Part shown: piece by piece, positions 42,907-55,941 of the stretch | How the letters are laid out: each line of letters opens with the position of its first letter | How positions within the stretch are numbered: the stretch's first letter is position 1 | Source: Microlunatus flavus | GTDB taxonomy: Bacteria; Actinomycetota; Actinomycetes; Propionibacteriales; Propionibacteriaceae | Direction of reading: 5' to 3' | Assembly: GCF_900110855.1 (NCBI RefSeq) | Contig: NZ_FOFA01000002.1 | Location: 186,001 to 250,000 of the forward strand | Length of the DNA: 64,000 nt | Notes under the pieces: model-generated | Database searches by the model: none | What the model was told of the DNA's origin: nothing | The model's input: the letters and a program-made list of their open reading frames with translations, nothing else | Made by a program: the position numbers and the translations under genes

Positions 42907-43764
42907 TCAGCCGATCGTCGGCGGGCTGGGGAGGCGGTAGCCGGACGGACCGACGGTCTTGTTGAGCGCCGCCTTCCAGGACCCGTCAGAGACGTACTCC
43001 TTGAGCGCGGCGTTCACCTGCTCCACCCGCTGGCTGTCGCCCTTCTTGACCCCGATCCCGTAGCGCTCGGTCGAGAAGCCCTTGCCGAGGACGCGGAGCT
43101 TGCCCTTGTACTGCGGCTCCGCGGCGAAGCCGGCGAGGATGACGTCGTCGGTGGTGACCGCGTCGACGTCGCTCGAGGCGAGCGCGGACACGCACTCGGA
43201 GTAGCGCGGCTTCTCCAGCAGCGTGATGCGGCCGCGGTAGCGCTTGAGGACGTTGTCGGCCGACGTCGTGCCCGGCACGGTGCACAGCGTCCGGCCGCCC
43301 AGGGTGGACGGGCCGGTGATGTCCTCCTCGTTGCGCCGGACCAGGAGGTCCTGCTCGGCGTCGAAGTAGGGCCCGGCGAAGTCGACGACCTGCTTGCGCT
43401 CGTCGGTGATCGAGAAGGTGGAGACGATCAGGTCCGCCCCGCCCGACTGCAGCAGCTGCTGGCGCTGGTCGCCCTCGGCCTCGACCCAGGTGATGTTCGC
43501 CGCCGGGACGCCGAGGGCCGCCGCGACGTACTTCGCCGTCTCGACGTCGAAGCCGCTGTAGGAGTCCCCGTCCTTGACGCCGATGCCCGGCTCGTCGAAG
43601 GGGATCCCGATGGTGAGCTTGCCGCCGCTCGAGGCCCCCGGTACGAGCGACGGGGAGGCGTTCGGCTCCGCCGATCCTCCGCACCCGGCGAGGGCGGCGA
43701 GGAGGGCGGCGGACGCAGCCGCGAGCGCGACCCGTCCAGGTCGGGGGTCTCGCGCTGCGTCCAC
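42907..43764 (-). CDS. Amino-acid (glutamate-type) ABC substrate-binding lipoprotein
   Basis: Periplasmic-type binding protein of 285 residues, family 3. The lipoprotein signal ends LLAALAGCGG with the lipidated Cys. The binding fold shows LTIGIPFDEPGIGVKDGDSY, GFDVETAKYVAAALGV, ADLIVSTFSITDERKQVVDFA and the C-terminal NKTVGPSGYRLP. It most resembles actinobacterial glutamate-binding GluB proteins. The GTG start is fixed by GAAGGAG 7 nt upstream. No ABC permease or ATPase gene is adjacent. It follows an APC permease by 38 bp on the same strand, an unusual pairing. Confidence 0.88.
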   Translation of the reverse strand: MDAARDPRPGRVALAAASAALLAALAGCGGSAEPNASPSLVPGASSGGKLTIGIPFDEPGIGVKDGDSYSGFDVETAKYVAAALGVPAANITWVEAEGDQRQQLLQSGGADLIVSTFSITDERKQVVDFAGPYFDAEQDLLVRRNEEDITGPSTLGGRTLCTVPGTTSADNVLKRYRGRITLLEKPRYSECVSALASSDVDAVTTDDVILAGFAAEPQYKGKLRVLGKGFSTERYGIGVKKGDSQRVEQVNAALKEYVSDGSWKAALNKTVGPSGYRLPSPPTIG

Positions 43765-43802
43765 CGTGGTGCTCCTTCGCTCCGTGGGGGGCCGCCGGCT
43801 GG

Positions 43803-45377
43803 CTAGCCGGCGGTGGTGGTGTCGTCCTGCTTGTCGCGGTCGAGGGCGTCCGGGGTGACGTCGTTGCCGTAGCGCGGGCCGTCCAGCGTCCAGACGGACT
43901 CGATGCGCCCGCCCGTGTTGGCCATGACCCGCGGCTTGACCACGCGCCAGCCGATGGCCAGCGCGAGGGCGAGGAGCGGGATGCCGAAGACGACGCACAG
44001 GAAGCTCGTCTTGTGCAGGAACTCGTCGCTGGCCTGCCAGCCCGAGACGGCCAGGCCGATCAGCACGAGCGCGAGGAAGGCGAGGCCGATGTAGCTCGTG
44101 TACGGCGACCCCGGCGCCTGGAAGGGGCTCGCCGGCACGACGCCGGCGTCGCTGAGCTTCCTCAGCCGGATCTGGCAGAGGAAGATCGTGGCCCAGGTCC
44201 ACAGGATCATGATCGACGTCGCCTCGACCGCGATCTCGAACGCGTCCGGGGTGAGGGCGTTGAGCACCGAGCCGAGCACGAAGACGATCGAGGTCATGAG
44301 GATGCCGGCGAAGGGCACGCCCGACTTGCTCATCTTGAGCGTGAACTTCGGGGCCTGCTTGCTCATGCCGAGGCTGCGCAGCACGCGGCCGGTGGTGTAG
44401 AGCCCGGAGTTGAGGCTCGACATGGCGGCGACGATGAGGATGGCCTGGATGACCGCGCTCATCCAGCCGAAGCCGAGCCGCTCGAAGACGGTGACGAACG
44501 GGCTGGTGCCGGCCTTGTAGTCCTGGGTCGGCAGCATGCAGACGAGCAGCAGGATCGAGCCGATGTAGAAGACGGCGATGCGGAAGATCACCGCGTGGAC
44601 GGCCTTCGGCACCTCCTTCTCCGCGTCGGCCATCTCGCCGGCCGCGACGCCGACCATCTCGATGGCGGCGTACGCGAACACGACGCCGGACATGACGAGG
44701 ATCGGGCCGTACCAGTTGTAGTCGCCGCTGCTCGGCCAGAAGCCGCCCGGGTTGCTCCACAGGTTCTGGAAGCCGGCCTTGTGCCCGCCGATGGACAGCC
44801 CGCCGATGACGACGACGAGGCCGACGACGAGGAAGATCACGATCGCGCCGACCTTGAGGATGGCGGCCCAGAACTCGAACTCGCCGAACGCCCGGGCCGA
44901 GAGCAGGTTGACCGACAGCACCACGACCAGGGAGACGAGCACCGTGATCCAGGTCGGCAGCGTCGGGAACCAGTACTGCATGTAGAGGCCGACGGCCGAG
45001 AGCTCGGCGATGCCGGTCAGGGCCCAGTTCAGCCAGTAGACCCAGCCGGTGACGAAGGCCCACTTCTCGCCGAAGAACTCGCGCATGTACGACACGAAGG
45101 CGCCGGAGGTGGCGCGGTGCAGCACGAGCTCGCCGAGCGCGCGCATGAGGAAGTAGGCGATGACGCCGACGACGGCGTAGCTGATGATGAGGGCCGGGCC
45201 GGTGCTGTGGAGGCGGGAGGCCGAGCCCAGGAACAGTCCGGTGCCGATGGCGCCGCCGATGGCGATCATCTGCACGTGCCGGCTGCCCAGCGTCTGCTGG
45301 TAGCCGGCCTGCTCGGCGTCGAGGCTGTTGCCCGGTGCGTCGCCGGAGGCCTCGGTGGGGTCCTGCGTCTGCGTCAT
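43803..45377 (-). CDS. APC superfamily amino acid permease (AAT family)
   Basis: Secondary amino-acid transporter of 524 residues with 12 predicted helices, like CycA/AnsP/GabP. Typical segments are RHVQMIAIGGAIGTGLFLGS (helix 1 substrate site), SGAFVSYMREFFGEKWAFVTG, AIEMVGVAAGEMADAEKEVPKA (split over helix 6), MSSLNSGLYTTGRVLRSLG and GVPFAGILMTS. The ATG at MTQTQD was chosen; an upstream in-frame extension is basic and unconserved. It is the first gene of an operon with the binding lipoprotein. The substrate cannot be fixed from sequence. Confidence 0.9.
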   Translation of the reverse strand: MTQTQDPTEASGDAPGNSLDAEQAGYQQTLGSRHVQMIAIGGAIGTGLFLGSASRLHSTGPALIISYAVVGVIAYFLMRALGELVLHRATSGAFVSYMREFFGEKWAFVTGWVYWLNWALTGIAELSAVGLYMQYWFPTLPTWITVLVSLVVVLSVNLLSARAFGEFEFWAAILKVGAIVIFLVVGLVVVIGGLSIGGHKAGFQNLWSNPGGFWPSSGDYNWYGPILVMSGVVFAYAAIEMVGVAAGEMADAEKEVPKAVHAVIFRIAVFYIGSILLLVCMLPTQDYKAGTSPFVTVFERLGFGWMSAVIQAILIVAAMSSLNSGLYTTGRVLRSLGMSKQAPKFTLKMSKSGVPFAGILMTSIVFVLGSVLNALTPDAFEIAVEATSIMILWTWATIFLCQIRLRKLSDAGVVPASPFQAPGSPYTSYIGLAFLALVLIGLAVSGWQASDEFLHKTSFLCVVFGIPLLALALAIGWRVVKPRVMANTGGRIESVWTLDGPRYGNDVTPDALDRDKQDDTTTAG

Positions 45378-45582
45378 GCGGTCGTCCTCGTGACTCGTGA
45401 CCGTGCGGTCGGGTGGGGAAGCGGGACGTTCCTTCGAGCGTGCGTGTTTTCCGGCAGCCTCTCGGAGGACTGCATCGCTTGGCAAGGTTTCGCGCGTAAC
45501 GGTCCGTCACGCGGTCGTTCACACGCCGTTCACACAACCTCCCACCCCTCGCCACGACGGTCCGGGGGTGGCCGCACCCCGT

Positions 45583-45594: not shown

Positions 45595-48500
45595 GTGAGC
45601 ATCAAGGTCGCGCTGGAGCACCGCACGACGTACCGCTTCGGCGGGCCCACGCAGCTGTTCCCGCACGTGGTCCGGCTGCGACCGGCGCCGCACACGCGGA
45701 CCCCGGTCGAGGCGTACTCGCTGAGCGTCACGCCGGCGGACCACTTCCTCAACTGGCAGCAGGACCCGTTCGGCAACTGGGTCGGGCGGCTGGTGTTCCC
45801 CTCCCCGGCGCGCGAGCTCGAGATCACCGTCGGCCTCGTCGCCGACCTCGGCGTGATCAACCCCTTCGACTTCTTCGTCGAGGAGTACGCGGAGACCTAC
45901 CCCTTCACCTACACCGAGGACCTGGCCGCCGACCTCCGCCCGTACCTGGCCGACCCCGCGCAGGAGACGGGGGACACGTTCTCCCGCTGGCTCGACGCGC
46001 TGCCCATCGACACGACGACGCCGCAGCGCACCATCACGTTCCTGGGTGCGCTCAACCGGGCGGTCAACACCGACGTCGCCTACTCCGTGCGCATGGAGGT
46101 CGGCGTCCAGACGCCGGACCAGACGCTCGAGCGCGGCATCGGCTCCTGCCGGGACTCCGCGTGGCTGCTCGTCGAGGCGCTGCGCCACTTCGGCCTGGCC
46201 GCGCGCTTCGTCTCCGGCTACCTCGTCCAGCTCGCCTCCGACGACCCGGCGCAGGGCGGGCCCGCCGAGGACTTCACCGACCTGCACGCCTGGGCCGAGG
46301 TCTACGTGCCCGGAGCGGGTTGGATCGGGCTGGACGCGACCTCGGCGCTGTTCGCCGGCGAGGGCCACATCCCGCTCTCCGCGACCCCGACCCCCGCGTC
46401 CTCCGCGCCCATCACCGGCGCGACCGGCCCGGCGCAGGTCGAGTTCTCCTTCTCCAACACCGTGCGGCGCATCCACGAGGACCCGCGGGTCACCAAGCCC
46501 TACTCGCCCGGGCAGGTCGAGGCGCTGCAGCGCTCCGGCGCCGCGGTCGACGAGCGCCTGCGGGCGGCCGGGCTGGAGCTGACGATGGGCGGCGAGCCCA
46601 CGTTCGTCAGCCGCGACGACATGGTGAGCCCGCAGTGGACGGTGGCGGCCGACGGTCCCGAGAAGCGCGTCGCCGCGAACCGGCTCGCCGAGGCCCTCGC
46701 CGAGCGGTACGCCGCCGGCGGGCTGGTCCAGCGCAGCCAGGGCAAGTGGTACCCGGGGGAGCCGCTGCCGCGCTGGCAGATCGGGCTGGTGTGGCGCCCC
46801 GACGGCGAGCGCGTCTGGAGCGACCCGGCCCGGCTCGCCGACCCGTACGACGAGTCGACGGCCAGCCCGGAGGCGGCGCAGCAGGCGCAGGCCCTGATGG
46901 ACGCCGTGGTGCGCGACCTGGGCCTGCCCGACGGCACCGCCCTGCCCTGCTACGAGGACCCGCTCGCCGCGCTCGCCGTGGAGGTGCGCCAGCCGGAGGG
47001 CCCGAGGCCCGACGTCGACCCCGTGGTGGCGGACCCGGCGGTGGTGGCCGAGCTGGACGCCGCGACCCCGGACCCGGTGGCCTGGGCGCTGCCGATCGTG
47101 CCGGCGTGGTTCGGCGACGTGTGGGCCAGCCCGGCGTGGCGGACCCGTCGCGGCCGGCTCGTGCTGGTGCCCGGTGACTCGCCGGCCGGCGCGCGGCTGC
47201 CGCTGTCGTCGGTCGCCTGGCGCGACCCCGACTACACCGGTGAACCGTCGTACGTGGAGCCCGACCCCGACCTGTCCGCCCAGGTCGGGCGCCCGCAGGC
47301 CGTCGTGGTCGACCCCGTCGAGGTGCCGACCCGAACGGCGGTCGTCGTGCAGGCGCGCGACGGCTTCGTGCACGTGTTCCTGCCGCCCGCCGAGCAGCTC
47401 GAGCGCTGGCTCGAGGTCGTCGCGCTCGTCGACCGGGCGGCGCAGGCCACCGGTACGCCGGTCGTGCTGGAGGGCTACGGCCCGCCGCCGGACCCGCGCA
47501 TCACGACGCTCCTCGTCACCCCGGACCCCGGCGTCATCGAGGTCAACCTGCACCCCACCGCGAGCTGGGCGGAGCTCAGCGAGCTCACCCACACCCTGTA
47601 CGCCCTCGCCGCCGAGCAGCGCCTCGGCACCGAGACCTTCGCGATCGACGGGCGACACTCGGGCACCGGCGGCGGCAACCACCTCACCCTCGGCGGTCCC
47701 ACGCCCGGGCGCTCGCCGATGCTGCGCCGGCCCGACCTGCTGGTCAGCATGCTCAGCTGGTGGCAGCGCCACCCGTCGCTGTCCTACGTCTTCTCCGGCC
47801 GCTTCGTCGGTCCCACGAGCCAGGCGCCCCGTTTCGACGAGGGCCGTCCGGAGAACCTCTACGAGATGGAGATCGCGTTCGCCGAGATCGAGTCGTTCGC
47901 CCCCGAGGAGGGCGCGGACGGTCCCGACGTGCCCGAGCACCGGCGCCGCGGGCTGCCGTGGGTGACCGATCGGGCGCTGCGGCACCTGCTCACCGACATC
48001 ACCGGCAACACCCACCGCGCCGAGTTCTGCATCGACAAGCTCTACAGCCCCGACTCCGCCCGCGGCAGGCTCGGGCTGCTCGAGCTGCGCGGCTTCGAGA
48101 TGCCGCCGCACCCCGACATGGCGCTGGTGCAGGCGCTGCTGGTGCGCGCCCTCGTCGCCCGCTTCGCCGAGGAACCCTTCTCGGCGCCCCTGGTCCGCTG
48201 GGGCACGACGCTGCACGAGCGCTTCCTGCTGCCGCACTTCGCCATGGCCGACCTCGCCGAGGTCGTCGCCGACCTGCGGGCGCACGGCTTCGAGGTCGAG
48301 GAGTCGTGGTTCGCGCCGTACCTCGAGTTCCGCTTCCCGCGGATCGGCGTCGCGCGGGCGGGCTCGGTGGAGATCGAGCTGCGGCAGGCCATCGAGCCCT
48401 GGAACGTGCTGGGCGAGGAGGCGACCTCGGGCGGCACCGCGCGCTACGTCGACTCCTCGACCGAGCGGGTCCAGGTCAAGGTCATCGGCTTCAACCCCGA

Positions 48501-48933
48501 GCTGCACCTCGTCACCTGCAACGGCGTCGCGGTGCCCATGACCGCGACGGGCACGCCCGGCGAGGCCGTCGCGGGGATCCGCTACCGCGCCTGGAAGCCC
48601 TGGTCCTCGCTGCACCCGACGCTCGAGATCGACGCGCCCCTGCACGTCGAGGTCGTCGACCGGGCCAACCGCGTCTCCCTCGGCGGGGCGACGTACCACG
48701 TGGTCCACCCGGGCGGGCGCTCGTACGACACCCCGCCGGTCAACGCCCACGAGGCCGAGGCGCGCCGCGCCCGGCGCTTCGAGGCGATGGGCCACACGGC
48801 GGGCGAGATCGACGTCGACGCGCTGGAGGAGCAGCTGGTCGCGCGCGTCGTCGAGGGCAGCGACTCCCCGCTCACGCTCGACCTGCGCCGCCGGGTCCCG
48901 GCCGCGTGGGGCCGCCAGCGGGCGCGGCGGTGA
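45595..48933 (+). CDS. Transglutaminase-like / DUF2126 (amidoligase-fold) fusion protein
   Basis: Protein of 1112 residues. The N-terminal bacterial transglutaminase-like module (about 1-260) has a complete triad: Cys185 in IGSCRDSAWLLVEALRHFG, His231 in DLHAWAEVYVPG and Asp247 in GLDATS. Such domains usually cleave or exchange peptide bonds. The rest is DUF2126 (COG4196), predicted to have the glutamine-synthetase/GCS amidoligase fold. It shows GLELTMGGEPTFVSRDD, the EVNLHPTASW segment, HSGTGGGNHLTLGG, ENLYEMEIAFAEI and ELRGFEMPPHPDMALVQALL. First gene of a three-gene operon; 4 bp before the ATP-grasp gene. The substrate peptide is unknown. Confidence 0.88.
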   Translation: MSIKVALEHRTTYRFGGPTQLFPHVVRLRPAPHTRTPVEAYSLSVTPADHFLNWQQDPFGNWVGRLVFPSPARELEITVGLVADLGVINPFDFFVEEYAETYPFTYTEDLAADLRPYLADPAQETGDTFSRWLDALPIDTTTPQRTITFLGALNRAVNTDVAYSVRMEVGVQTPDQTLERGIGSCRDSAWLLVEALRHFGLAARFVSGYLVQLASDDPAQGGPAEDFTDLHAWAEVYVPGAGWIGLDATSALFAGEGHIPLSATPTPASSAPITGATGPAQVEFSFSNTVRRIHEDPRVTKPYSPGQVEALQRSGAAVDERLRAAGLELTMGGEPTFVSRDDMVSPQWTVAADGPEKRVAANRLAEALAERYAAGGLVQRSQGKWYPGEPLPRWQIGLVWRPDGERVWSDPARLADPYDESTASPEAAQQAQALMDAVVRDLGLPDGTALPCYEDPLAALAVEVRQPEGPRPDVDPVVADPAVVAELDAATPDPVAWALPIVPAWFGDVWASPAWRTRRGRLVLVPGDSPAGARLPLSSVAWRDPDYTGEPSYVEPDPDLSAQVGRPQAVVVDPVEVPTRTAVVVQARDGFVHVFLPPAEQLERWLEVVALVDRAAQATGTPVVLEGYGPPPDPRITTLLVTPDPGVIEVNLHPTASWAELSELTHTLYALAAEQRLGTETFAIDGRHSGTGGGNHLTLGGPTPGRSPMLRRPDLLVSMLSWWQRHPSLSYVFSGRFVGPTSQAPRFDEGRPENLYEMEIAFAEIESFAPEEGADGPDVPEHRRRGLPWVTDRALRHLLTDITGNTHRAEFCIDKLYSPDSARGRLGLLELRGFEMPPHPDMALVQALLVRALVARFAEEPFSAPLVRWGTTLHERFLLPHFAMADLAEVVADLRAHGFEVEESWFAPYLEFRFPRIGVARAGSVEIELRQAIEPWNVLGEEATSGGTARYVDSSTERVQVKVIGFNPELHLVTCNGVAVPMTATGTPGEAVAGIRYRAWKPWSSLHPTLEIDAPLHVEVVDRANRVSLGGATYHVVHPGGRSYDTPPVNAHEAEARRARRFEAMGHTAGEIDVDALEEQLVARVVEGSDSPLTLDLRRRVPAAWGRQRARR

Positions 48934-48937
48934 CCCG

Positions 48938-51766
48938 GTGACCGTGGTCGACTCCCCCCTGAACCGCTACCTCGACGCCGCCCGGCAGCCCGACGCCGAG
49001 CAGGCGGGCGCCCCCGTCGACGCGGAGCGGGGCGCCGCCTTCGACGAGCTGGCCGCCCCGGACGGCACCCCGCGTCCCGCCTGGGCCGCCCTGGTCGACG
49101 ACCTCGCCCGGGCGACCGACGACCTCGCCTCCGCCCGGCGCGAGGTGGCCCGCCTGCTCGAGGACGACAACGTCACCTACACCCCGAGCCCGACCTCGGC
49201 GCACTCGGTCGCCGACCTGCGGGAGGAGAGCGGCGCCGCGCAGCCGGCGCTCGAGCAGCCGCGGCCCTGGCGCCTCGACCCGATCCCGCTGGTGCTGCAC
49301 GACCGGGAGTGGGCGACCCTCGAGGCGGGCGTCGTCCAGCGCGCCGAGCTGCTCGACGCGGTGCTCGCCGACCTGTACGGGGCCCGGCGCCTGCTTGCCC
49401 GCGGCCAGCTGCCTCCGGCCGTGGTGCTCGACCACGAGGAGTACCTGCGCCCGGTCGTCGGCGCGGAGCACGTGGTCGACCAGCGCCTGTTCATGACCGC
49501 GGCCGACCTCGGCCGCGACGCGACCGGCGCGTGGAAGGTCATCTCCGACCGCACCCAGGCGCCGTCGGGCGCCGGCTACGCGATGCAGAACCGCCGCGTC
49601 GTGTCCCGCGTGCTGCCCGAGATCTACCACGCGGCCCACCTGCACCGGCTCACCCCGTTCTTCCAGGCGATGCGGGTGGCGCTGGTCGAGTCGGCGCCGA
49701 GCACCGTCGAGGACCCCCGCGTGGTCGTCCTCAGCCCCGGCACGCACTCCGAGACCGCCTTCGACCAGGCCTTCGTCGCCTCGCTGCTCGGCTTCCCGCT
49801 CCTCGAGGGCAGCGATCTGCTGGTCCGCGACGGCCGGGTGTGGATGCGGGTGCTCGGCCGCCTCGAGCAGGTCGACGTGATCCTGCGCCGCGTGGACTCG
49901 ACATGGATGGACGCCCTCGAGCTGCGCGGCGGCTCGCGGCTCGGCGTGACCGGGCTGCTGGAGTGCGTCCGGCAGGGCACCGTCAGCGTGGTCAACACGA
50001 TCGGCTCCGGCGTGCTGGAGAACCCGGCCCTGCTGCCCTTCCTGCCCGACCTGTGCGAGCGCCTGCTCGGCGAGCCGCTGCGGCTGCCGTCGGTGGACAC
50101 CTGGTGGTGCGGCGACCGCGAGGGGCTGGCGTACGTCCGCGGGCACCTCGACGAGCTCGTCGTCCGGGCGGTGAACCGCGGGGCGGGCCGCAGCGTCGTC
50201 GGGTCGGCCCTCAGCCGGGACCAGCGCGAGCGGCTCCTGGCCCGCATCGACGCCGCACCGCACCGCTTCGTCGGGCAGGAGGTGCTGCCGCTCAGCTCGG
50301 CGCCGACCGTTCCCGACGACACCGACGCCGGCGGAGCGCTGGTGCGCCGCAGCGTCGTGCTGCGCTCCTTCGCCGTGCGCAGCGGCAGCTCGTACACGGC
50401 CATGCTCGGCGGGCTCGCCCGCACCAACGACGAGCACGCGACCGACCGCGGCGCGCTGGTCACCGCGCCCGACGGCGGGGTGGCCAAGGACGTGTGGGTC
50501 GTCAGCAGCGAGCCCGTGCCGGCCTCGCGCAGCGCCTCGACCCGCAGCCGCGCCGACGAGGGGAGCGCCATCGCCCCCGGGGCCGCGGCCGCGGCGATGG
50601 TGCCGCGCGTGCTCAGCGACCTCTACTGGTTCGGCCGCTACGCCGAGCGCGCGGAGGACCTGCTCCGGATCGTCCTCGTCAGCCGCACGGTGATGCTGGA
50701 GACCGACGCCGACGTACGCCCCGGGCACGCGCTGGACGTGCTGCTGCGCGCGGTCACGCACGTGAGCACGACCTACCCGGGATTCGTCGGCGCCCTGGGC
50801 CCGGACGGCTCGCTCGCCGAGCGGCGGGCCGCCGTGATGCCCGAGCTGCGCTCGCTGCTGCTCGACCGGCGTCGCGCGGGTTCGGTGGCGCAGTCGGTGG
50901 CGGCGCTCGGAGCCACGGCGCAGGGCGTGCGCGACCAGCTGTCGGAGGACGTCTGGATGGTCCTCGCCGACGTCGAGCGGGCGCTGGGCACGCTCGCCGG
51001 GCAGCCGCGCGACCAGGGGCTGCACCTGGTCGAGGCGGGGGAGCGGGTGCTCTCCGGGCTCCTCGCGCTGACCGGCATCGCCGGAGAGAACATGGTCCGC
51101 GACCCCGGCTGGCTGCTCCTCGACACCGGTCGCGGGCTGGAGCGGGCGCTGCAGGTCCTGAGCCTGCTGCGGGCGACCCTGGTCGACTCCTACGGGCCCG
51201 ACGTCGACCGGGTCGTCGTCGAGGCGGCCCTGACGAGCTCGGAGTCGATCGTCACGTTCCGGCGCCGCTACCGCGGGCGGTCGGGGGTGTCGGCGGTGCT
51301 CGAGCTGATGGTGCTCGACCCGTCGAACCCACGCTCGGTGGCCTACCAGCTGCAGCGGATGCAGGCCGACCTGCGGGCGGTGCCCAGCACCTCTCCGACC
51401 GCGCGGCCCCTGCGGCTGCTCGACAACCTCGCCGAGCAGGTGCGCACGGCCGACCCGGTGGCGCTGGCCACCGTCACGCGTCCCGACGACGGCGCGGACG
51501 CCGACCTCCCGGCGCGCCGCGACGCCCTGGAGGCGTTCTGCGCCGAGCTGCACGCGGGGCTCCGCGACCTCTCGACGGCCATCCGCGACCAGTACCACGA
51601 GCCGCCGCCGACGCAGCAGTCGCTGCCCCGGCAGCAGGCCCTCCGTCGCGGACCCGGGGCCCCCCGCGAAACGCTGACGGACGACAGCCAGATCGGGCTC
51701 GGCGCTGTCGTCCCTCAGCGGTTCGCGGGGGCGGCGAGCGAGCGTCGGGCGGGAGGGGCACGATGA
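48938..51766 (+). CDS. Circularly permuted ATP-grasp / alpha-E fusion protein
   Basis: Protein of 942 residues joining two domains often encoded separately. The first half (about 90-510) is a circularly permuted ATP-grasp ligase: WRLDPIPLVLHDREWATLEAG, LLDAVLADLYGARRLL, VISDRTQAPSGAGYAMQNRR, VDVILRRVDSTWMDALEL, VVNTIGSGVLENPAL and the late RSFAVRSGSSYTAMLGGLAR. The second half (about 545-880) is the alpha-E domain, beginning VPRVLSDLYWFGRYAERAEDLL. Predicted to form amide bonds in an unknown peptide. The GTG start lies 4 bp after the previous stop, and the stop overlaps the next ATG. Confidence 0.88.
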   Translation: MTVVDSPLNRYLDAARQPDAEQAGAPVDAERGAAFDELAAPDGTPRPAWAALVDDLARATDDLASARREVARLLEDDNVTYTPSPTSAHSVADLREESGAAQPALEQPRPWRLDPIPLVLHDREWATLEAGVVQRAELLDAVLADLYGARRLLARGQLPPAVVLDHEEYLRPVVGAEHVVDQRLFMTAADLGRDATGAWKVISDRTQAPSGAGYAMQNRRVVSRVLPEIYHAAHLHRLTPFFQAMRVALVESAPSTVEDPRVVVLSPGTHSETAFDQAFVASLLGFPLLEGSDLLVRDGRVWMRVLGRLEQVDVILRRVDSTWMDALELRGGSRLGVTGLLECVRQGTVSVVNTIGSGVLENPALLPFLPDLCERLLGEPLRLPSVDTWWCGDREGLAYVRGHLDELVVRAVNRGAGRSVVGSALSRDQRERLLARIDAAPHRFVGQEVLPLSSAPTVPDDTDAGGALVRRSVVLRSFAVRSGSSYTAMLGGLARTNDEHATDRGALVTAPDGGVAKDVWVVSSEPVPASRSASTRSRADEGSAIAPGAAAAAMVPRVLSDLYWFGRYAERAEDLLRIVLVSRTVMLETDADVRPGHALDVLLRAVTHVSTTYPGFVGALGPDGSLAERRAAVMPELRSLLLDRRRAGSVAQSVAALGATAQGVRDQLSEDVWMVLADVERALGTLAGQPRDQGLHLVEAGERVLSGLLALTGIAGENMVRDPGWLLLDTGRGLERALQVLSLLRATLVDSYGPDVDRVVVEAALTSSESIVTFRRRYRGRSGVSAVLELMVLDPSNPRSVAYQLQRMQADLRAVPSTSPTARPLRLLDNLAEQVRTADPVALATVTRPDDGADADLPARRDALEAFCAELHAGLRDLSTAIRDQYHEPPPTQQSLPRQQALRRGPGAPRETLTDDSQIGLGAVVPQRFAGAASERRAGGAR

Positions 51767-52641
51767 CCCGCTACCGGATCGAGCACGTGACGACGTACGA
51801 GTACGACGCCGACGTCACCGGGAGCTTCGGGCAGTTCCACCTGACGCCCCGGGACCTGCCGTGGCAGACGGTGCTGGAGCACCGGGTCGGCGTGGAGCCG
51901 GGGCCGGCGACCCTGCTGTCGCACACCGACCTCTACGGCAACACCAAGTCCTCGTTCCACGTGACCGACCCGCACACCCGGCTGGTCGTGCGGGCGGTGA
52001 CGCAGCTCGACGTCGTGCCGCCTGTGCTGCCGCCCGAGGCGCTCGCGGTGGCGTGGGAGGACGCCCGTCCCGCCGTGCGCACGGAGGAGCCGGACGCCTG
52101 GGAGGCCGCCGACTTCACCTTCGCCTCGCCCTACGTCGACGTGCCCGCCGCCGTCGAGGCGTACGCGCGGGAGTCCTTCACGCCCAGACGTGCGCTCGGG
52201 GAGGCGGCTACCGAGCTGATGCACCGGGTGCACGACGACTTCACCTACAAGCCGCGCTCGACGATCATCGGCGAGAAGGTCGTCGACCTGCTCGTGAAGC
52301 GCCACGGCGTGTGCCAGGACTTCTCGCACGTGATGGTCGCGGGGCTCCGCTCCCTCGGGCTGGCCGGCCGCTACGTCTCGGGCTACCTCGCCACCCGGCC
52401 GCCGCCCGGGCGCCCGCGCCTGGTCGGCGCCGACGCCAGCCACGCCTGGGTGGGCGTGTGGGTGCCGGGGGCCGGCTGGCTGCACCTCGACCCGACGAAC
52501 GACCGCCTCACCGACGCCTCCCACGCCACCGTGGCGTGGGGGCGCGACTACGGCGACGTGCCGCCCGTGCGCGGCGTGATCTTCACCGAGGCCAAGCACT
52601 CCTCGATGAAGGTCTCCGTCGACATGGCCCCCGCCGCCTGA
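51763..52641 (+). CDS. Transglutaminase family protein (stand-alone)
   Basis: Protein of 292 residues with N-terminal beta domain (MTRYRIEHVTTYEYDADVTG, FHLTPRDLPWQ) and transglutaminase core. The triad is intact: Cys184 in KRHGVCQDFSHVMVAGLRSL, His227 in DASHAWVGVWVPG and Asp243 in HLDPTND. No signal peptide is seen, so it probably acts in the cytoplasm, on a peptide made by the two upstream proteins. ATG start overlapping the previous stop (ATGA). Last gene of the module; the next gene has its own promoter. Confidence 0.92.
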   Translation: MTRYRIEHVTTYEYDADVTGSFGQFHLTPRDLPWQTVLEHRVGVEPGPATLLSHTDLYGNTKSSFHVTDPHTRLVVRAVTQLDVVPPVLPPEALAVAWEDARPAVRTEEPDAWEAADFTFASPYVDVPAAVEAYARESFTPRRALGEAATELMHRVHDDFTYKPRSTIIGEKVVDLLVKRHGVCQDFSHVMVAGLRSLGLAGRYVSGYLATRPPPGRPRLVGADASHAWVGVWVPGAGWLHLDPTNDRLTDASHATVAWGRDYGDVPPVRGVIFTEAKHSSMKVSVDMAPAA

Positions 52642-52703: not shown

Positions 52704-53000
52704 GTGATCCGCCACACCGTCGCGTTCCGTCTCGTCCACCCCGAGGGCTCGCCCGAGGAGCAGGCGTTCCTCACCGAGGGTCCGGCGCTGCTGCGGGCGA
52801 TCCCCGGCGTCGAGGACTTCGTCGTGTCGCGCCAGGTCGGAGCCAAGAGCACCCTGCGGTTCCAGTTCGCCATGACCTTCGCCGACCAGGCGGCGTACGA
52901 CGCGTACGACGCGCACCCCGACCACCGGCGGTTCGTGGAGACGCGGTGGGCGGGCGAGGTCGCGGAGTTCGCCGAGCTCGACCTGGTGCCGTACCCCTGA
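52704..53000 (+). CDS. Dabb (stress-responsive alpha-beta barrel) protein
   Basis: Protein of 98 residues, a dimeric ferredoxin-like fold: IRHTVAFRLVHPEGSPEEQAF, then PGVEDFVVSRQVGAKS, FAMTFADQAAYDAYDAHPDH and RFVETRW. The family includes plant stress proteins and some polyketide cyclases; the bacterial single-domain members have no fixed role. GTG start in a leaderless context. Convergent with the phosphoesterase gene, with a hairpin between. Confidence 0.88.
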   Translation: MIRHTVAFRLVHPEGSPEEQAFLTEGPALLRAIPGVEDFVVSRQVGAKSTLRFQFAMTFADQAAYDAYDAHPDHRRFVETRWAGEVAEFAELDLVPYP

Positions 53001-53109: not shown

Positions 53110-55941
53110 TCAGCGGTCCCCGTCGACCCCCGGGATGTCCGCGCCGGGCACGTCGGCCGGGGCGTAGAGCTTGTCGTCACCCGGGTAGGGCTTCACCCAG
53201 CCGTGCGTCTGGTACCAGGTGTAGCGGTTCAGCTGCTCCGGGTGGGCGTAGTCCGGGATCGCCCCGTTGCCCGTCAGGTGCTGCGACTGGCTCCACTGCT
53301 CCCAGGCCTTGGCCAGCGGCTGCTGGGCCGCCGGCACGGCCGCCGCCTTCTCGGACTCCGCGCGGACCTTCTTCGCCGCGGCGCCCTTCTTGCCGAGCGT
53401 GTCGGTCCCGCAGCTCGGCTGCGTCACCAGGCCCTCGGTGAGCGGGACCCGGTTGGGCACCGCGGTGAACGGCGTGAGGTCCGGCTTGTCGGTGAAGGCG
53501 CCGTACATCGGCGTGGCCGCCGCGACCTTCTGGTTGAGCGGCGCCGCGCCGAGGATCTGCTCGATCGTGCGCACCATCGTGATCTGGGAGTAGTAGGTGC
53601 TGTCGACCTTGCCGTGCTGCGCGTACGGGCTGATGATCTGCACCGGCGCACGGTGGCCGTCGACGTGGTCCACGCCGTCCTGGCTGTCGTCCTCGACGAC
53701 GAAGATCGCCGAGTCCTTCCAGTAGCGGCTGTGCGAGATCGCCGAGACGATCTTGCCCACCGCCAGGTCGCCGTCGGCCACCTGCGCACGCGGGTCGGCC
53801 GGGCCGCCGGTGTGGTCGCTGGAGAGCCACATCATGTTCAGGCTCGCCGGACCCCGCTTGGCGAACTCCTTCTTCCAGATCTGGAACCGGTACTGGTCGG
53901 GGATCGCCGTGTCGAACTGCGGCGCGTCGTGGTTGGACACCGCGTTCAGCGAGGGGATCGGCGACTGGTCGTCCACCCGGATCGCCGGGTCGGTGAGCTG
54001 GGCGGGGTCGCCGCCCTTGTCGACGTTCTGCGACGCGCAGTAGTACTGCTGCCAGGTCGCCGCCTCCGGCTTGTTCTCGAACGCCATGAACTCGCCGAAG
54101 TTGCGCACGCTGCCGCCCGCGGCCTGCACCGCGGTCCACAGGAAGCCGGAGCGCTGGTGGCCGAGCACGTCGTTCTCGGTGTCGTAGCTGCGCAGGTACT
54201 CCCCGGCGCTCGACTCGGTGTACTCCGGGTTGTCGCCCTGCATCACCCAGTTGTGGCCCTCGGCGGAGTTGGTGCCGACGTCGTAGAAGTTGTCGTACAG
54301 GCCGAACTGGCGCGCGAGCGCGTGCTGGTTGGGCGTGACCTTCTCCCCGAACTGCGCCAGCGTCGGGTCGCCGTTGCCGCGCGTGTCGTCGCCGTAGACC
54401 TGGTCGTAGGTCCGGTTCTCCTTGACGAGCAGGAACACGTGCTTGATCTTGGACGGGTCGCCGATCTTCTTCGGCACCGCCACCGGGGCGGCCTTGGTGG
54501 CGCCCGCCTTGGCCACGTCGCTGCCGGTCCACCCGTTCTGGGCGAAGACCGTCTTCGTGTACGCCGCGATCTGGGCGTCGGTGGGCAGCGTGAAGCGGGT
54601 CAGCGAGCCGGTCGTGCTGTGGGTGTTGTGGTCGGTGGCCGAGACCGTCCCGAAGCCCTTGCTGATCGTCTGCTCCGGGCCGCGCGCGTCGATCCCGCGC
54701 GTGTTGGTGACGACGACCTGGCCGCCCGCCTCGGCGATGTCGGCGGGGAAGTAGTCGGTCGGCAGCAGGCCGAGGTAGCTCACCGGCTCCTGCGGCGTGC
54801 CGCCGTAGCGGTAGACGGCGACCGCGTTGGCGCGGGCGAGCGTGACCAGCAGGTGCCCGTCGCGGGTCAGCACGACGCTGGTCGGTGAGTAGCCGACGTT
54901 CGACGACTCCCACGGCCGGGTGGCGATCGTCTGCACGACCTTGCCGAGGGTGGTGTCGACCACGGAGACCGTGTCGTTGAACGTGTTCGTCACGAACAGC
55001 GCGTTCCCGGCCGCGTACATCGCGGTGGGGTGCAGCCCGACCCGGATGGCGGCGACCGGCGACCCGGCGGCGGCGGTGTCGATCACGCTGAGCGTGCCGG
55101 AGGTCGAGGTGCCCTTGAAGGCGTTCGCCGGCACCTGGGTGCCGTACGACTCGATCGTCGTGTCGCCGGCCACGGCCTGCCGGCCGCCCTCGTTGCTCAC
55201 GTAGAGCTTCGTGCCGACCAGGACGACGGCCCGCGGGGCGATGCCGACCTGCCAGGTCCGCTTCACCGCGCCGGTCGCCGCGTCGATCGCCACGACGGTG
55301 TTCTGCCCGTTGAGCGGCGCGAAGACGGTGGTGCCGTCGGGGGAGAACGTCGCCTTGCCGGGCAGCGCCTGGAGCGCGCTCAGCTGGGTGTTCGGGTCCG
55401 GGGTGATCGGCTTGGTGGGCAGGGCGATGGTCGTCGGCCGGGTGAGCGAGCCGTCGACCTGCACGTCGAAGCGGGTGAAGCCGTTCGCCTGCGGCAGCCA
55501 GAGCTGCTTGCCGTCGGGGGAGAACGACGGGCCCTCCTGGCCGACGGTGCGGTCGTCCAGCTTGGTGTTCACGCCGGGCTGGCTACCGACCAGCCACACG
55601 GGCTTCTGCGCGGCGAGGTCGAAGACCTGCAGGACCACGCCGCTGTCGGCGCTGGACGCGGCGAGGAACCGCCCGTCCGGGCTGACCGCCGAACCCATGA
55701 ACTTGCCGTACTTGGTGACCAGCCGCTGCCCGAGGGGCTTGAGGGACTGGTCGGAGGAGATCTGCAGCCCGGTGGCGTACGTGCTGCCGACCTGCTGCTG
55801 GCCGAGCGAGACCGTGCTGGCGTCGGCGGCGCCGCTGCCGGCGACCGCGAGCGCGGCGACGCCGACGAGCACGAGGCGCCCGGGTCGACGGCGGAGGAAC
55901 GCGGAACCGCTGGAGGTCCTGCGTCGACGGGTGACCTGCAT
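53110..55941 (-). CDS. Secreted beta-propeller plus phosphoesterase protein
   Basis: Protein of 943 residues. The N-terminal Arg-rich signal/anchor (about 20-42) precedes a seven-bladed-type propeller (about 50-430, FSPDGKQLWLPQANG and FSPDGTTVFAPLNGQ repeats). A phosphoesterase domain of the phospholipase C/acid phosphatase type follows (about 495-850): HVFLLVKENRTYDQVYGDD, SAEGHNWVMQGDNPEY and VVEDDSQDGVDHVDGHRAPV. Asp, Asn and His in these segments bind the metals. It probably hydrolyses phosphate esters outside the cell; the substrate is unknown. ATG start. Third gene of an operon with an ABC ATPase and permease; 2 bp separate it from the permease. Confidence 0.87.
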   Translation of the reverse strand: MQVTRRRRTSSGSAFLRRRPGRLVLVGVAALAVAGSGAADASTVSLGQQQVGSTYATGLQISSDQSLKPLGQRLVTKYGKFMGSAVSPDGRFLAASSADSGVVLQVFDLAAQKPVWLVGSQPGVNTKLDDRTVGQEGPSFSPDGKQLWLPQANGFTRFDVQVDGSLTRPTTIALPTKPITPDPNTQLSALQALPGKATFSPDGTTVFAPLNGQNTVVAIDAATGAVKRTWQVGIAPRAVVLVGTKLYVSNEGGRQAVAGDTTIESYGTQVPANAFKGTSTSGTLSVIDTAAAGSPVAAIRVGLHPTAMYAAGNALFVTNTFNDTVSVVDTTLGKVVQTIATRPWESSNVGYSPTSVVLTRDGHLLVTLARANAVAVYRYGGTPQEPVSYLGLLPTDYFPADIAEAGGQVVVTNTRGIDARGPEQTISKGFGTVSATDHNTHSTTGSLTRFTLPTDAQIAAYTKTVFAQNGWTGSDVAKAGATKAAPVAVPKKIGDPSKIKHVFLLVKENRTYDQVYGDDTRGNGDPTLAQFGEKVTPNQHALARQFGLYDNFYDVGTNSAEGHNWVMQGDNPEYTESSAGEYLRSYDTENDVLGHQRSGFLWTAVQAAGGSVRNFGEFMAFENKPEAATWQQYYCASQNVDKGGDPAQLTDPAIRVDDQSPIPSLNAVSNHDAPQFDTAIPDQYRFQIWKKEFAKRGPASLNMMWLSSDHTGGPADPRAQVADGDLAVGKIVSAISHSRYWKDSAIFVVEDDSQDGVDHVDGHRAPVQIISPYAQHGKVDSTYYSQITMVRTIEQILGAAPLNQKVAAATPMYGAFTDKPDLTPFTAVPNRVPLTEGLVTQPSCGTDTLGKKGAAAKKVRAESEKAAAVPAAQQPLAKAWEQWSQSQHLTGNGAIPDYAHPEQLNRYTWYQTHGWVKPYPGDDKLYAPADVPGADIPGVDGDR

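What the first reader, a model, noticed from the sequence alone, without database searches (positions are those of the whole stretch)
45595..52641. Three-gene transglutaminase / DUF2126 / permuted ATP-grasp-alpha-E module with no known product
The operon combines two predicted amide-bond-forming folds (DUF2126 amidoligase-like; circularly permuted ATP-grasp with alpha-E) with two transglutaminase-like proteases, both with complete Cys-His-Asp triads (C185/H231/D247 and C184/H227/D243). The gene order and overlaps show one unit. Comparative genomics has predicted that such sets make or trim a peptide (the amidoligase surveys of Iyer and co-workers, as I recall), but no substrate is known to me. 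None of the proteins has a signal peptide, so the chemistry should be cytoplasmic.
Basis: partly seen in the sequence, partly recalled or inferred. Interest (0 to 1): 0.72.

Follow-up and report, generated by a model that had tools for sequence, protein, structure and literature searches.

The report
Peptide-enzyme module with degenerate ATP-grasp
A real, widespread but unsolved set of bacterial enzymes that should build and trim peptide bonds; here one of its two presumed bond-making enzymes seems to have lost the residues such enzymes need, and its promoter resembles a phosphate-starvation switch, which makes its role easier to test.

Summary
In detail: three + strand genes, A 45595-48933 (Tgl-DUF2126), B 48938-51766 (CP-ATP-grasp + Alpha-E), C 51763-52641 (Tgl), both triads conserved. 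It is a known, unsolved kind. Found here, by computation only:
(1) B is predicted not to be an ATP-dependent ligase: the E-x-N motif (Mg ligands in glutathione synthetase, recalled) and the Gly-rich loop occur in 28 of 28 paralogues of a second module (M1) and 0 of 123 B types. 34 of 34 DUF2126 genomes of one class draw also carry motif-intact M1.
(2) The usual fourth gene, a Zn-ribbon metallopeptidase, has no match in this genome; nor has Anbu.
(3) Promoters point to starvation: GlnR-like boxes before A in some relatives (16 of 85 loci; 14 of 21 in a clade set chosen afterwards; 0 of 510 null windows); NtrC/sigma54 or N-limitation in two proteobacteria (papers). The window instead has a PHO-like box whose exact pattern occurs 7 times in the genome, also before phoU, PstS-like, alkaline phosphatase and PiT genes.
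No small substrate gene was found; the product is unknown. Best reading: a starvation-induced peptide make/trim system in which DUF2126 and M1 ligate and B assists.

The parts
45517..45533 (+). PHO-box-like direct repeat GTTCAC-N5-GTTCAC (looser 10-11 nt repeat from 45496; PHO consensus recalled), 61 nt before A
   Evidence: Exact pattern at 7 places in the genome, 0 for the reversed control; 4 others precede phoU, PstS-like, alkaline phosphatase and PiT genes in the same orientation; exact in close relative L223, 1 mismatch in L224, absent in L040 and L219-L222
45583..45588 (+). -10-like TAGGGT, 6 nt before the GTG (leaderless transcript likely; inference)
   Evidence: read from sequence; the consensus scan found no sigma70-type site
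45595..48933 (+). gene A: transglutaminase-like peptidase domain fused to DUF2126 (putative GS-like amidoligase)
45595..46404 (+). A, transglutaminase-like part (residues 1-270), triad C185/H231/D247
   Evidence: solved relatives 3isr and TgpA 6g49
46495..48933 (+). A, DUF2126 part (residues 301-1112)
   Evidence: Pfam PF09899; weak fold matches of the whole model to glutamine synthetase/GmaS and phage amidoligases (aligned region not shown)
48938..51766 (+). gene B: degenerate circularly permuted ATP-grasp fused to Alpha-E
   Evidence: Pfam; model pLDDT 84 matches 3n6x, glutathione synthetases, GspS; catalytic motifs absent
51763..52641 (+). gene C: stand-alone transglutaminase-like protein, triad C184/H227/D243

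Best explanation
The three genes encode the accessory half of a cytoplasmic peptide make-and-trim system that is switched on by nutrient starvation. DUF2126 in A is the only bond-forming domain in the operon likely to be catalytically intact (inferred). The transglutaminase-like domains of A and C cut or transfer an amide or peptide bond (triads shown, activity inferred). B keeps the ATP-grasp and Alpha-E folds but has lost the metal-ligand and nucleotide-loop motifs (shown by sequence), so it most likely acts as a non-catalytic partner, substrate holder or regulator. The ATP-dependent ligation is done by the intact paralogue in a second module of the same genome (ATP-grasp, Alpha-E, Tgl; locus L005), which accompanies DUF2126 in each of the 34 DUF2126 genomes of the class draw. 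In this genome the operon is predicted to be under phosphate-starvation (PhoP) control; in some related actinobacteria under GlnR; in proteobacteria under NtrC/sigma54 (papers on two species). The molecule made is unknown.
For: M1 ATP-grasp: E-x-N..PSG and K-x5-GGxG in 28 of 28, and in 33 of 33 further M1 copies; B type: 0 of 123 for both; the two sets separate on a tree. 34 of 34 genomes over the DUF2126 cut-off in the class draw have at least 2 Alpha-E loci; in the 33 other than own the second locus was fetched and is M1 in 33 of 33, and own M1 is L005. M1 lies within 6.5 kb of DUF2126 in 19 of 30 flank-complete non-actinobacterial loci, 4 of them with no B. Tgl triads conserved. GlnR-like box: 16 of 85 loci, 14 of 21 in a clade set, 0 of 510 null windows; same motif strict within 500 nt upstream, either strand, of 7 of 12 amt genes. 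PHO box. Induction under N limitation or NtrC: P. putida PP_2685-2688 (the Anbu/M1-type operon) and B. cenocepacia I35_5080-5083, in print (passages).
Against: No activity, complex or product has been shown; Anbu-operon proteins gave no specific interaction in one study (PMC6376114) and co-expression did not help in another (PMC5666114). In 9 loci B-C occurs in genomes with no DUF2126 match, so B and C do not need A; in 4 flank-complete non-actinobacterial loci DUF2126 sits with M1 and no B. B keeps conserved charged residues (R317, D325, N353, R476, K517, D518), so an unusual catalysis cannot be excluded. The E-x-N assignment as metal ligands is recalled, not mapped on a ligand complex here. 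Taken over all 85 upstream regions the best GlnR or PHO match is not special against random windows of the same loci (mean control tail 0.39 and 0.67): the GlnR signal is confined to part of the clades. Own amt has no strict GlnR box. Allowing 2 mismatches, PHO-like sites in the window are at chance (3 found, 2.67 expected); only the exact match is notable. L040 and L219-L222 of the same genus lack the PHO box.
Confidence: 0.5

Rival explanations
1. One reading: both DUF2126 and the ATP-grasp of B are working ligases that together build a peptide, trimmed by the two Tgl proteins, all within this operon.
For: Fold of B is ATP-grasp; B retains R317, D325, N353 (43 of 43, 68 of 68) and R476, K517, D518 (122 or more of 123); an ATP-grasp of an Anbu operon released phosphate from ATP (PMC6376114).
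Against: 0 of 123 B-type proteins have E-x-N or the Gly loop; the active precedent belongs to an Anbu operon and is probably M1-type (inference, not compared by sequence).
Confidence: 0.15
2. Mainly degradative: a starvation-induced system in which the Tgl proteins (and, elsewhere, the zinc peptidase or Anbu) cut peptides or isopeptide-modified proteins to salvage nitrogen; the ligase-like domains bind or mark the substrate.
For: Peptidase-type parts outnumber ligase-type parts: Tgl in A and C, Peptidase_Mx beside the module in 58 of 85 flank-complete actinobacterial loci, Anbu in 9 loci; induction under N limitation.
Against: A is conserved at mean 54% column identity over 52 proteins from several phyla, with many invariant acidic residues and histidines in the DUF2126 part, and M1 keeps an intact ligase site; a purely degradative system would not need them. 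The window genome has no match to Mx or Anbu.
Confidence: 0.25
3. The promoter element serves the divergent amino-acid permease (minus strand, ORF 43803-45485) and the module's regulation here is unrelated to phosphate.
For: The intergenic region is shared.
Against: Orientation and spacing fit A (61 nt before its GTG; phoU 78, phoA 77, PiT 79 nt), and four of the six other exact sites are upstream of phosphate genes.
Confidence: 0.15

Closest known systems
Amidoligase/ATP-grasp/Alpha-E/transglutaminase peptide systems predicted by Iyer et al. 2009 (PMC3268129; not held; known here only through citing papers and recall)
   Same: Domain set Tgl-DUF2126, CP-ATP-grasp, Alpha-E, Tgl in one operon (the DUF2126 part recalled)
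   Different: No metallopeptidase in this genome; B's ATP-grasp degenerate; PHO-like box. Whether the 2009 paper already notes an inactive ATP-grasp or the metallopeptidase could not be checked
Anbu operon (ATP-grasp, Alpha-E, Tgl, Anbu), e.g. P. putida PP_2685-2688, Yersinia bercovieri (passages of PMC6376114, PMC5666114, PMC8050072, PMC7801951)
   Same: ATP-grasp, Alpha-E and Tgl of the same families; nitrogen-starvation link
   Different: No Anbu match in this genome; that operon probably uses the M1-type ATP-grasp (inference); DUF2126 is extra
Burkholderia cenocepacia I35_5080-5083 (DUF404/407, DUF403, Tgl, large Tgl protein), NtrC/sigma54 regulon (PMC5491218, passages)
   Same: Same set of domains as named in the paper, if the large Tgl protein is the DUF2126 one (inference)
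   Different: Different regulator; gene products not compared by sequence here
Mycobacterial gene set (Rv2566, Rv2567, Rv2568c, Rv2569c; names recalled)
   Different: Window lacks the metallopeptidase; in some mycobacterial loci (e.g. L095, L109) C and the peptidase are on the opposite strand
3n6x, putative glutathionylspermidine synthase of Methylobacillus flagellatus
   Same: The one solved structure found for B by sequence and its best match by fold
   Different: 3n6x is M1-like, with both motifs

Membership tests
Tgl/DUF2126/ATP-grasp/Alpha-E peptide system (Iyer-type) | Tgl fused to DUF2126 | tested here: met
   A2 invariant columns
Tgl/DUF2126/ATP-grasp/Alpha-E peptide system (Iyer-type) | CP-ATP-grasp and Alpha-E next to it | tested here: met
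Tgl/DUF2126/ATP-grasp/Alpha-E peptide system (Iyer-type) | second transglutaminase-like protein with Cys-His-Asp | tested here: met
   0 matches in own genome; beside the module in 58 of 85 flank-complete actinobacterial loci and in L219, L221, L225 of the same genus
active ATP-grasp ligase (glutathione synthetase/GspS type) | ATP-grasp fold | tested here: met
   model m47831ade5bd9: 3n6x E 8e-29, glutathione synthetases, GspS
active ATP-grasp ligase (glutathione synthetase/GspS type) | E-x-N metal ligands and Gly-rich nucleotide loop (roles recalled) | tested here: not met
   0 of 123 B type vs 28 of 28 M1
GS-like amidoligase (DUF2126) | glutamine-synthetase-like fold with nucleotide pocket | tested here: inconclusive
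   GS/GmaS matches E 0.12-0.66, prob 0.23-0.90; four phage proteins named amidoligase E 0.11-0.32, prob 0.35-0.85; aligned region not shown; model pLDDT 78
Anbu operon | Anbu gene | tested here: not met
   no match in own genome, 1 of 296 class genomes (one Anbu protein as query)
PhoP regulon | PHO box before the gene (consensus recalled) | tested here: met
PhoP regulon | PhoP binding and induction by phosphate limitation | not testable with these tools
   needs EMSA and RNA-seq
GlnR regulon | GTnAC-n6-GnAAC before the gene (consensus recalled) | tested here: not met
   absent before A in the window; present in some related loci

The most novel reading that the evidence does not exclude
A conserved pseudo-ATP-grasp fused to Alpha-E, kept across at least three phyla, serves as the non-catalytic partner of an active paralogue encoded by a second operon, forming a two-operon peptide-ligating machine with DUF2126. 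Its control has been rewired between nitrogen (NtrC, GlnR) and, in the window's clade, phosphate (PhoP) starvation.
Probability: 0.45. Interest if true: 0.7.

Novelty: new variant of a known kind. Interest (0 to 1): 0.52.

Why it matters
The set is widespread in bacteria and, as far as the papers seen here say, has had no proven substrate or product since it was predicted. Showing which of its two presumed ligases can work, that the intact ATP-grasp lies in another operon, and under which starvation the operon should be on tells an experimenter which condition and which pair of deletions to use.

Tried and rejected
Small conserved substrate gene: in 36 actinobacterial loci (window + L040-L074) ORFs of 35 aa or more were clustered; beyond A, B, C and the metallopeptidase, families in at least 4 loci were found in 4-7 loci with median length 156 aa or more. 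ORFs under 35 aa, weak matches and families in fewer than 4 loci would be missed, and some listed families are antisense shadows. GlnR control of the window copy: no box found. sigma54 site before A in all non-actinobacteria: only some (L118, L122, L138, L140, L146, 50-63 nt upstream, with 0 to 17% of local control windows scoring as high; 11 of 36 loci with a same-strand score of 16 or more), so supporting only. NCBIfam names for A, B, C: none. Own M1 promoter: no GlnR-like (1 mismatch or fewer) or PHO-like (2 or fewer) site in the 520 nt examined. Foldseek matches of A to unrelated toxins (prob 0.08 or less) were taken as chance. Profile search of A against solved structures finds Tgl relatives and one chance match, no DUF2126 relative. 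A first loop pattern was one residue too long and gave 0 of 33; corrected (33 of 33).

Selection and dependence: the 21-locus set for the GlnR test was chosen by clade after the motif had been seen; the figure for all 85 loci (16 strict, same strand, within -50 to -25) stands beside it, and one further strict site (L175, -61) lies outside both the test and the null windows. The 130 A loci and the 123/28 ATP-grasp sequences are partly close relatives, with some duplicates between unnamed and named collections (L064 and L110 look like the same contig), so counts are not independent. The named set is the best 80 of 587 confirmed matches. A2 used 52 of 78 A proteins at hand. Ten ATP-grasp hits with stops or short matches were dropped; 15 A loci with under 4.5 kb downstream were left out of the flank-complete tally. 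Of the 16 class genomes with two Alpha-E loci and no DUF2126, 12 were looked at: 9 have B-C, 3 showed only M1-type genes in the stretch fetched.
Full report
What is there. The three genes are real and placed as the finding says: A 45595-48933, B 48938-51766, C 51763-52641, all on +, 4 nt between A and B and a 4 nt overlap of B and C. Pfam gives Tgl-N + Tgl core + DUF2126 for A, CP_ATPgrasp_2 + Alpha-E for B, Tgl-N + Tgl core for C. NCBIfam has no match for any of the three at E 0.001. The solved Tgl relatives found are 3isr and the TgpA domain 6g49.

Co-occurrence. In an even draw of 149 genomes of the phylum DUF2126 occurs in 6, each with Alpha-E within about 4 kb (positions compared by eye). 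In 296 genomes of the class 35 match, 34 over the curated cut-off. Of 115 fetched loci with at least 4.5 kb downstream, B is beside A in 84 of 85 actinobacterial and 26 of 30 other loci, C in 83 and 26. The named loci (best 80 of 587 matches) include Actinobacteria, proteobacteria of several classes, Bacteroidota and Nitrospirota.

A missing fourth gene. A protein of about 330-375 aa with a zinc ribbon and Peptidase_Mx domain (HExxH) lies beside the module in 58 of 85 flank-complete actinobacterial loci. Over the curated cut-off it occurs in 6 of 149 phylum genomes, 5 of which are DUF2126 genomes; the window's genome has no match. In the genus, 9 of 20 genomes have DUF2126; of the seven further genus loci fetched, three have the peptidase beside the module (L219, L221, L225), L040 does not. 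It is not beside the module in 8 loci of the window's family from other genera (L169-L176). Anbu, the proteasome-like partner in the literature, lies in 9 of the proteobacterial loci (L136 copy matched to solved Anbu) but in only 1 of 296 class genomes and not in this one.

A second module. The window's genome holds another Alpha-E locus with a separate ATP-grasp, Alpha-E and Tgl and no DUF2126 (L005; here M1). All 34 genomes over the DUF2126 cut-off in the class draw have at least 2 Alpha-E loci; of the 262 others 78 have one or more and 16 have two or more (counted by hand). For the 33 genomes other than own the second locus was fetched and is ATP-grasp-Alpha-E-Tgl of the M1 type in 33 of 33. 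In non-actinobacteria M1 is often next door: within 6.5 kb in 19 of 30 flank-complete loci, 4 of them with DUF2126 and M1 but no B. Against a strict dependence of B on A: 9 loci have B-C, 8 of them with the metallopeptidase, in genomes with no DUF2126 match.

B is a degenerate ATP-grasp. The model of B (pLDDT 84) matches 3n6x, eukaryotic glutathione synthetases and glutathionylspermidine/trypanothione synthetases, so the fold is ATP-grasp. But aligning M1 with B-type proteins shows that the E-x-N strand (VLEDN.R.PSG in M1) reads S-D-R in the window, and no B type has E or N at those two places; the Gly-rich loop after the lysine is gone too. In the larger set 28 of 28 M1 and 0 of 123 B types have E-x-N..PSG, and 28 of 28 vs 0 of 123 have K-x5-GGxG; a FastTree tree rooted at the midpoint separates the two sets. 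The 33 further M1 copies have both. 3n6x, the solved relative, is M1-like. That E-x-N and the loop bind Mg and ATP in glutathione synthetase and GspS is recalled, not tested here. B keeps K517 (122 of 123), D518 and R476 (123 of 123), and R317, D325 and N353 (43 of 43), so binding of some ligand is plausible.

DUF2126. The model of A (pLDDT 78) gives Foldseek matches to glutamine synthetases and gamma-glutamylmethylamide synthetases only at E 0.12-0.66 (prob 0.23-0.90) and to four phage proteins named amidoligase at E 0.11-0.32 (prob 0.35-0.85); none reaches E 0.001, and the listings do not show which part of A is aligned. Many acidic residues and histidines of the DUF2126 part are invariant over 52 proteins. 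I take an active amidoligase as likely, the fold as not proven.

Regulation. In some relatives a strict GTnAC-n6-GnAAC (the actinobacterial GlnR box, consensus recalled) lies 38-39 nt before the start of A, just upstream of a -10-like hexamer and a leaderless start. It is strict, on the same strand and within -50 to -25, in 16 of 85 loci, and in 14 of 21 loci of a clade set chosen after the motif was seen (13 at -38/-39, one at -49); 0 of 510 comparable windows further upstream are strict. Over all 85 loci without regard to position the best match is not special (mean control tail 0.39). The same strict motif lies within 500 nt upstream, on either strand, of 7 of 12 ammonium-transporter genes in 8 genomes that have the module; own amt has only a 1-mismatch site. 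Of 9 B-C loci without A, 8 have no strict match in about 700 nt upstream of B and the ninth one on the other strand. In print: P. putida PP_2685-2688, the Anbu-type operon, is induced on nitrate or under N limitation (PMC8050072, PMC7801951, PMC3325844), and B. cenocepacia I35_5080-5083 depends on NtrC and sigma54 (PMC5491218); passages read. Five proteobacterial loci here have near-consensus sigma54 sites 50-63 nt before A.

The window itself has no GlnR box. It has GTTCAC-N5-GTTCAC at 45517-45533. This exact pattern occurs 7 times in 4.79 Mb, the reversed control 0 times. Four of the other six sites precede, in the same orientation, genes with PhoU, PstS-like (PBP_like_2), alkaline-phosphatase and PHO4 (PiT) domains; the start codons lie 78 (phoU), 77 (phoA) and 79 nt (PiT) after the box, A's 61 nt (not measured for the PstS-like gene). 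The remaining two sites are before an acyltransferase in the opposite orientation and beside ORFs without a Pfam match. The box is kept in L223 (exact; a close relative, proteins mostly 81-94% identical) and L224 (1 mismatch) but absent in L040 and L219-L222 of the same genus, where the module follows a gene whose C-terminus resembles S-adenosylhomocysteine hydrolase (by eye, recalled). So in the window's clade the module is a predicted phosphate-starvation gene set, while other evidence ties its relatives to nitrogen starvation.

Reading. A-B-C most likely is the accessory half of a starvation-induced peptide make/trim system: DUF2126 and the M1 ATP-grasp form bonds, the Tgl proteins cut or transfer, B supports or regulates. 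Shown: genes, triads, conservation, loss of B's motifs, presence of M1, promoter boxes. Inferred: every catalytic role, any complex, and PhoP/GlnR binding. No product can be named. In the held library no paper names DUF2126 or DUF2126 with transglutaminase, and none of the 6 papers listed for GlnR with transglutaminase looks to be about this operon by title (listing only). The survey that predicted such systems (Iyer et al. 2009) is not held, so priority for the inactive ATP-grasp and for the metallopeptidase cannot be claimed.

Noticed in passing
window 53113-55884 (-): Predicted beta-propeller plus Phosphoesterase-family protein downstream of and convergent to the module; a phosphate-scavenging role is possible.
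   Followed up: partly
window 43803-45368 (-) and 42907-43800 (-): Divergent amino-acid permease (best NCBIfam match, below cut-off, is L-asparagine permease) and an SBP_bac_3 amino-acid-binding protein.
   Followed up: partly
window 52704-53000 (+): Dabb (stress-responsive A/B barrel) gene right after C.
   Followed up: no
L113:6656-7906, L127:7681-8985, L132:7870-9099, L144:7569-8891, L146:15920-17158 (also L145): A conserved protein of about 410 aa (four copies without a Pfam match, two tried in NCBIfam without a match) sits beside the DUF2126 or M1 genes in 6 proteobacterial loci.
   Followed up: partly
L127:12463-13773: Citrate synthase gene between DUF2126 and B in a Methylobacter locus; gaps of similar size in L137, L144 and L148.
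   Followed up: no
L177-L185: B-C units (8 of 9 with the metallopeptidase) in genomes with no DUF2126 match.
   Followed up: partly
L203 and L207 (own genome): Two further exact PHO-like boxes, one beside ORFs without Pfam match and one opposite an acyltransferase gene.
   Followed up: partly
L041-L050 vs L169-L176: In DUF2126 the window's protein is closer to those of another family of the order (59-63% identity) than to those of other genera of its own family (49-55%), hinting at transfer.
   Followed up: no
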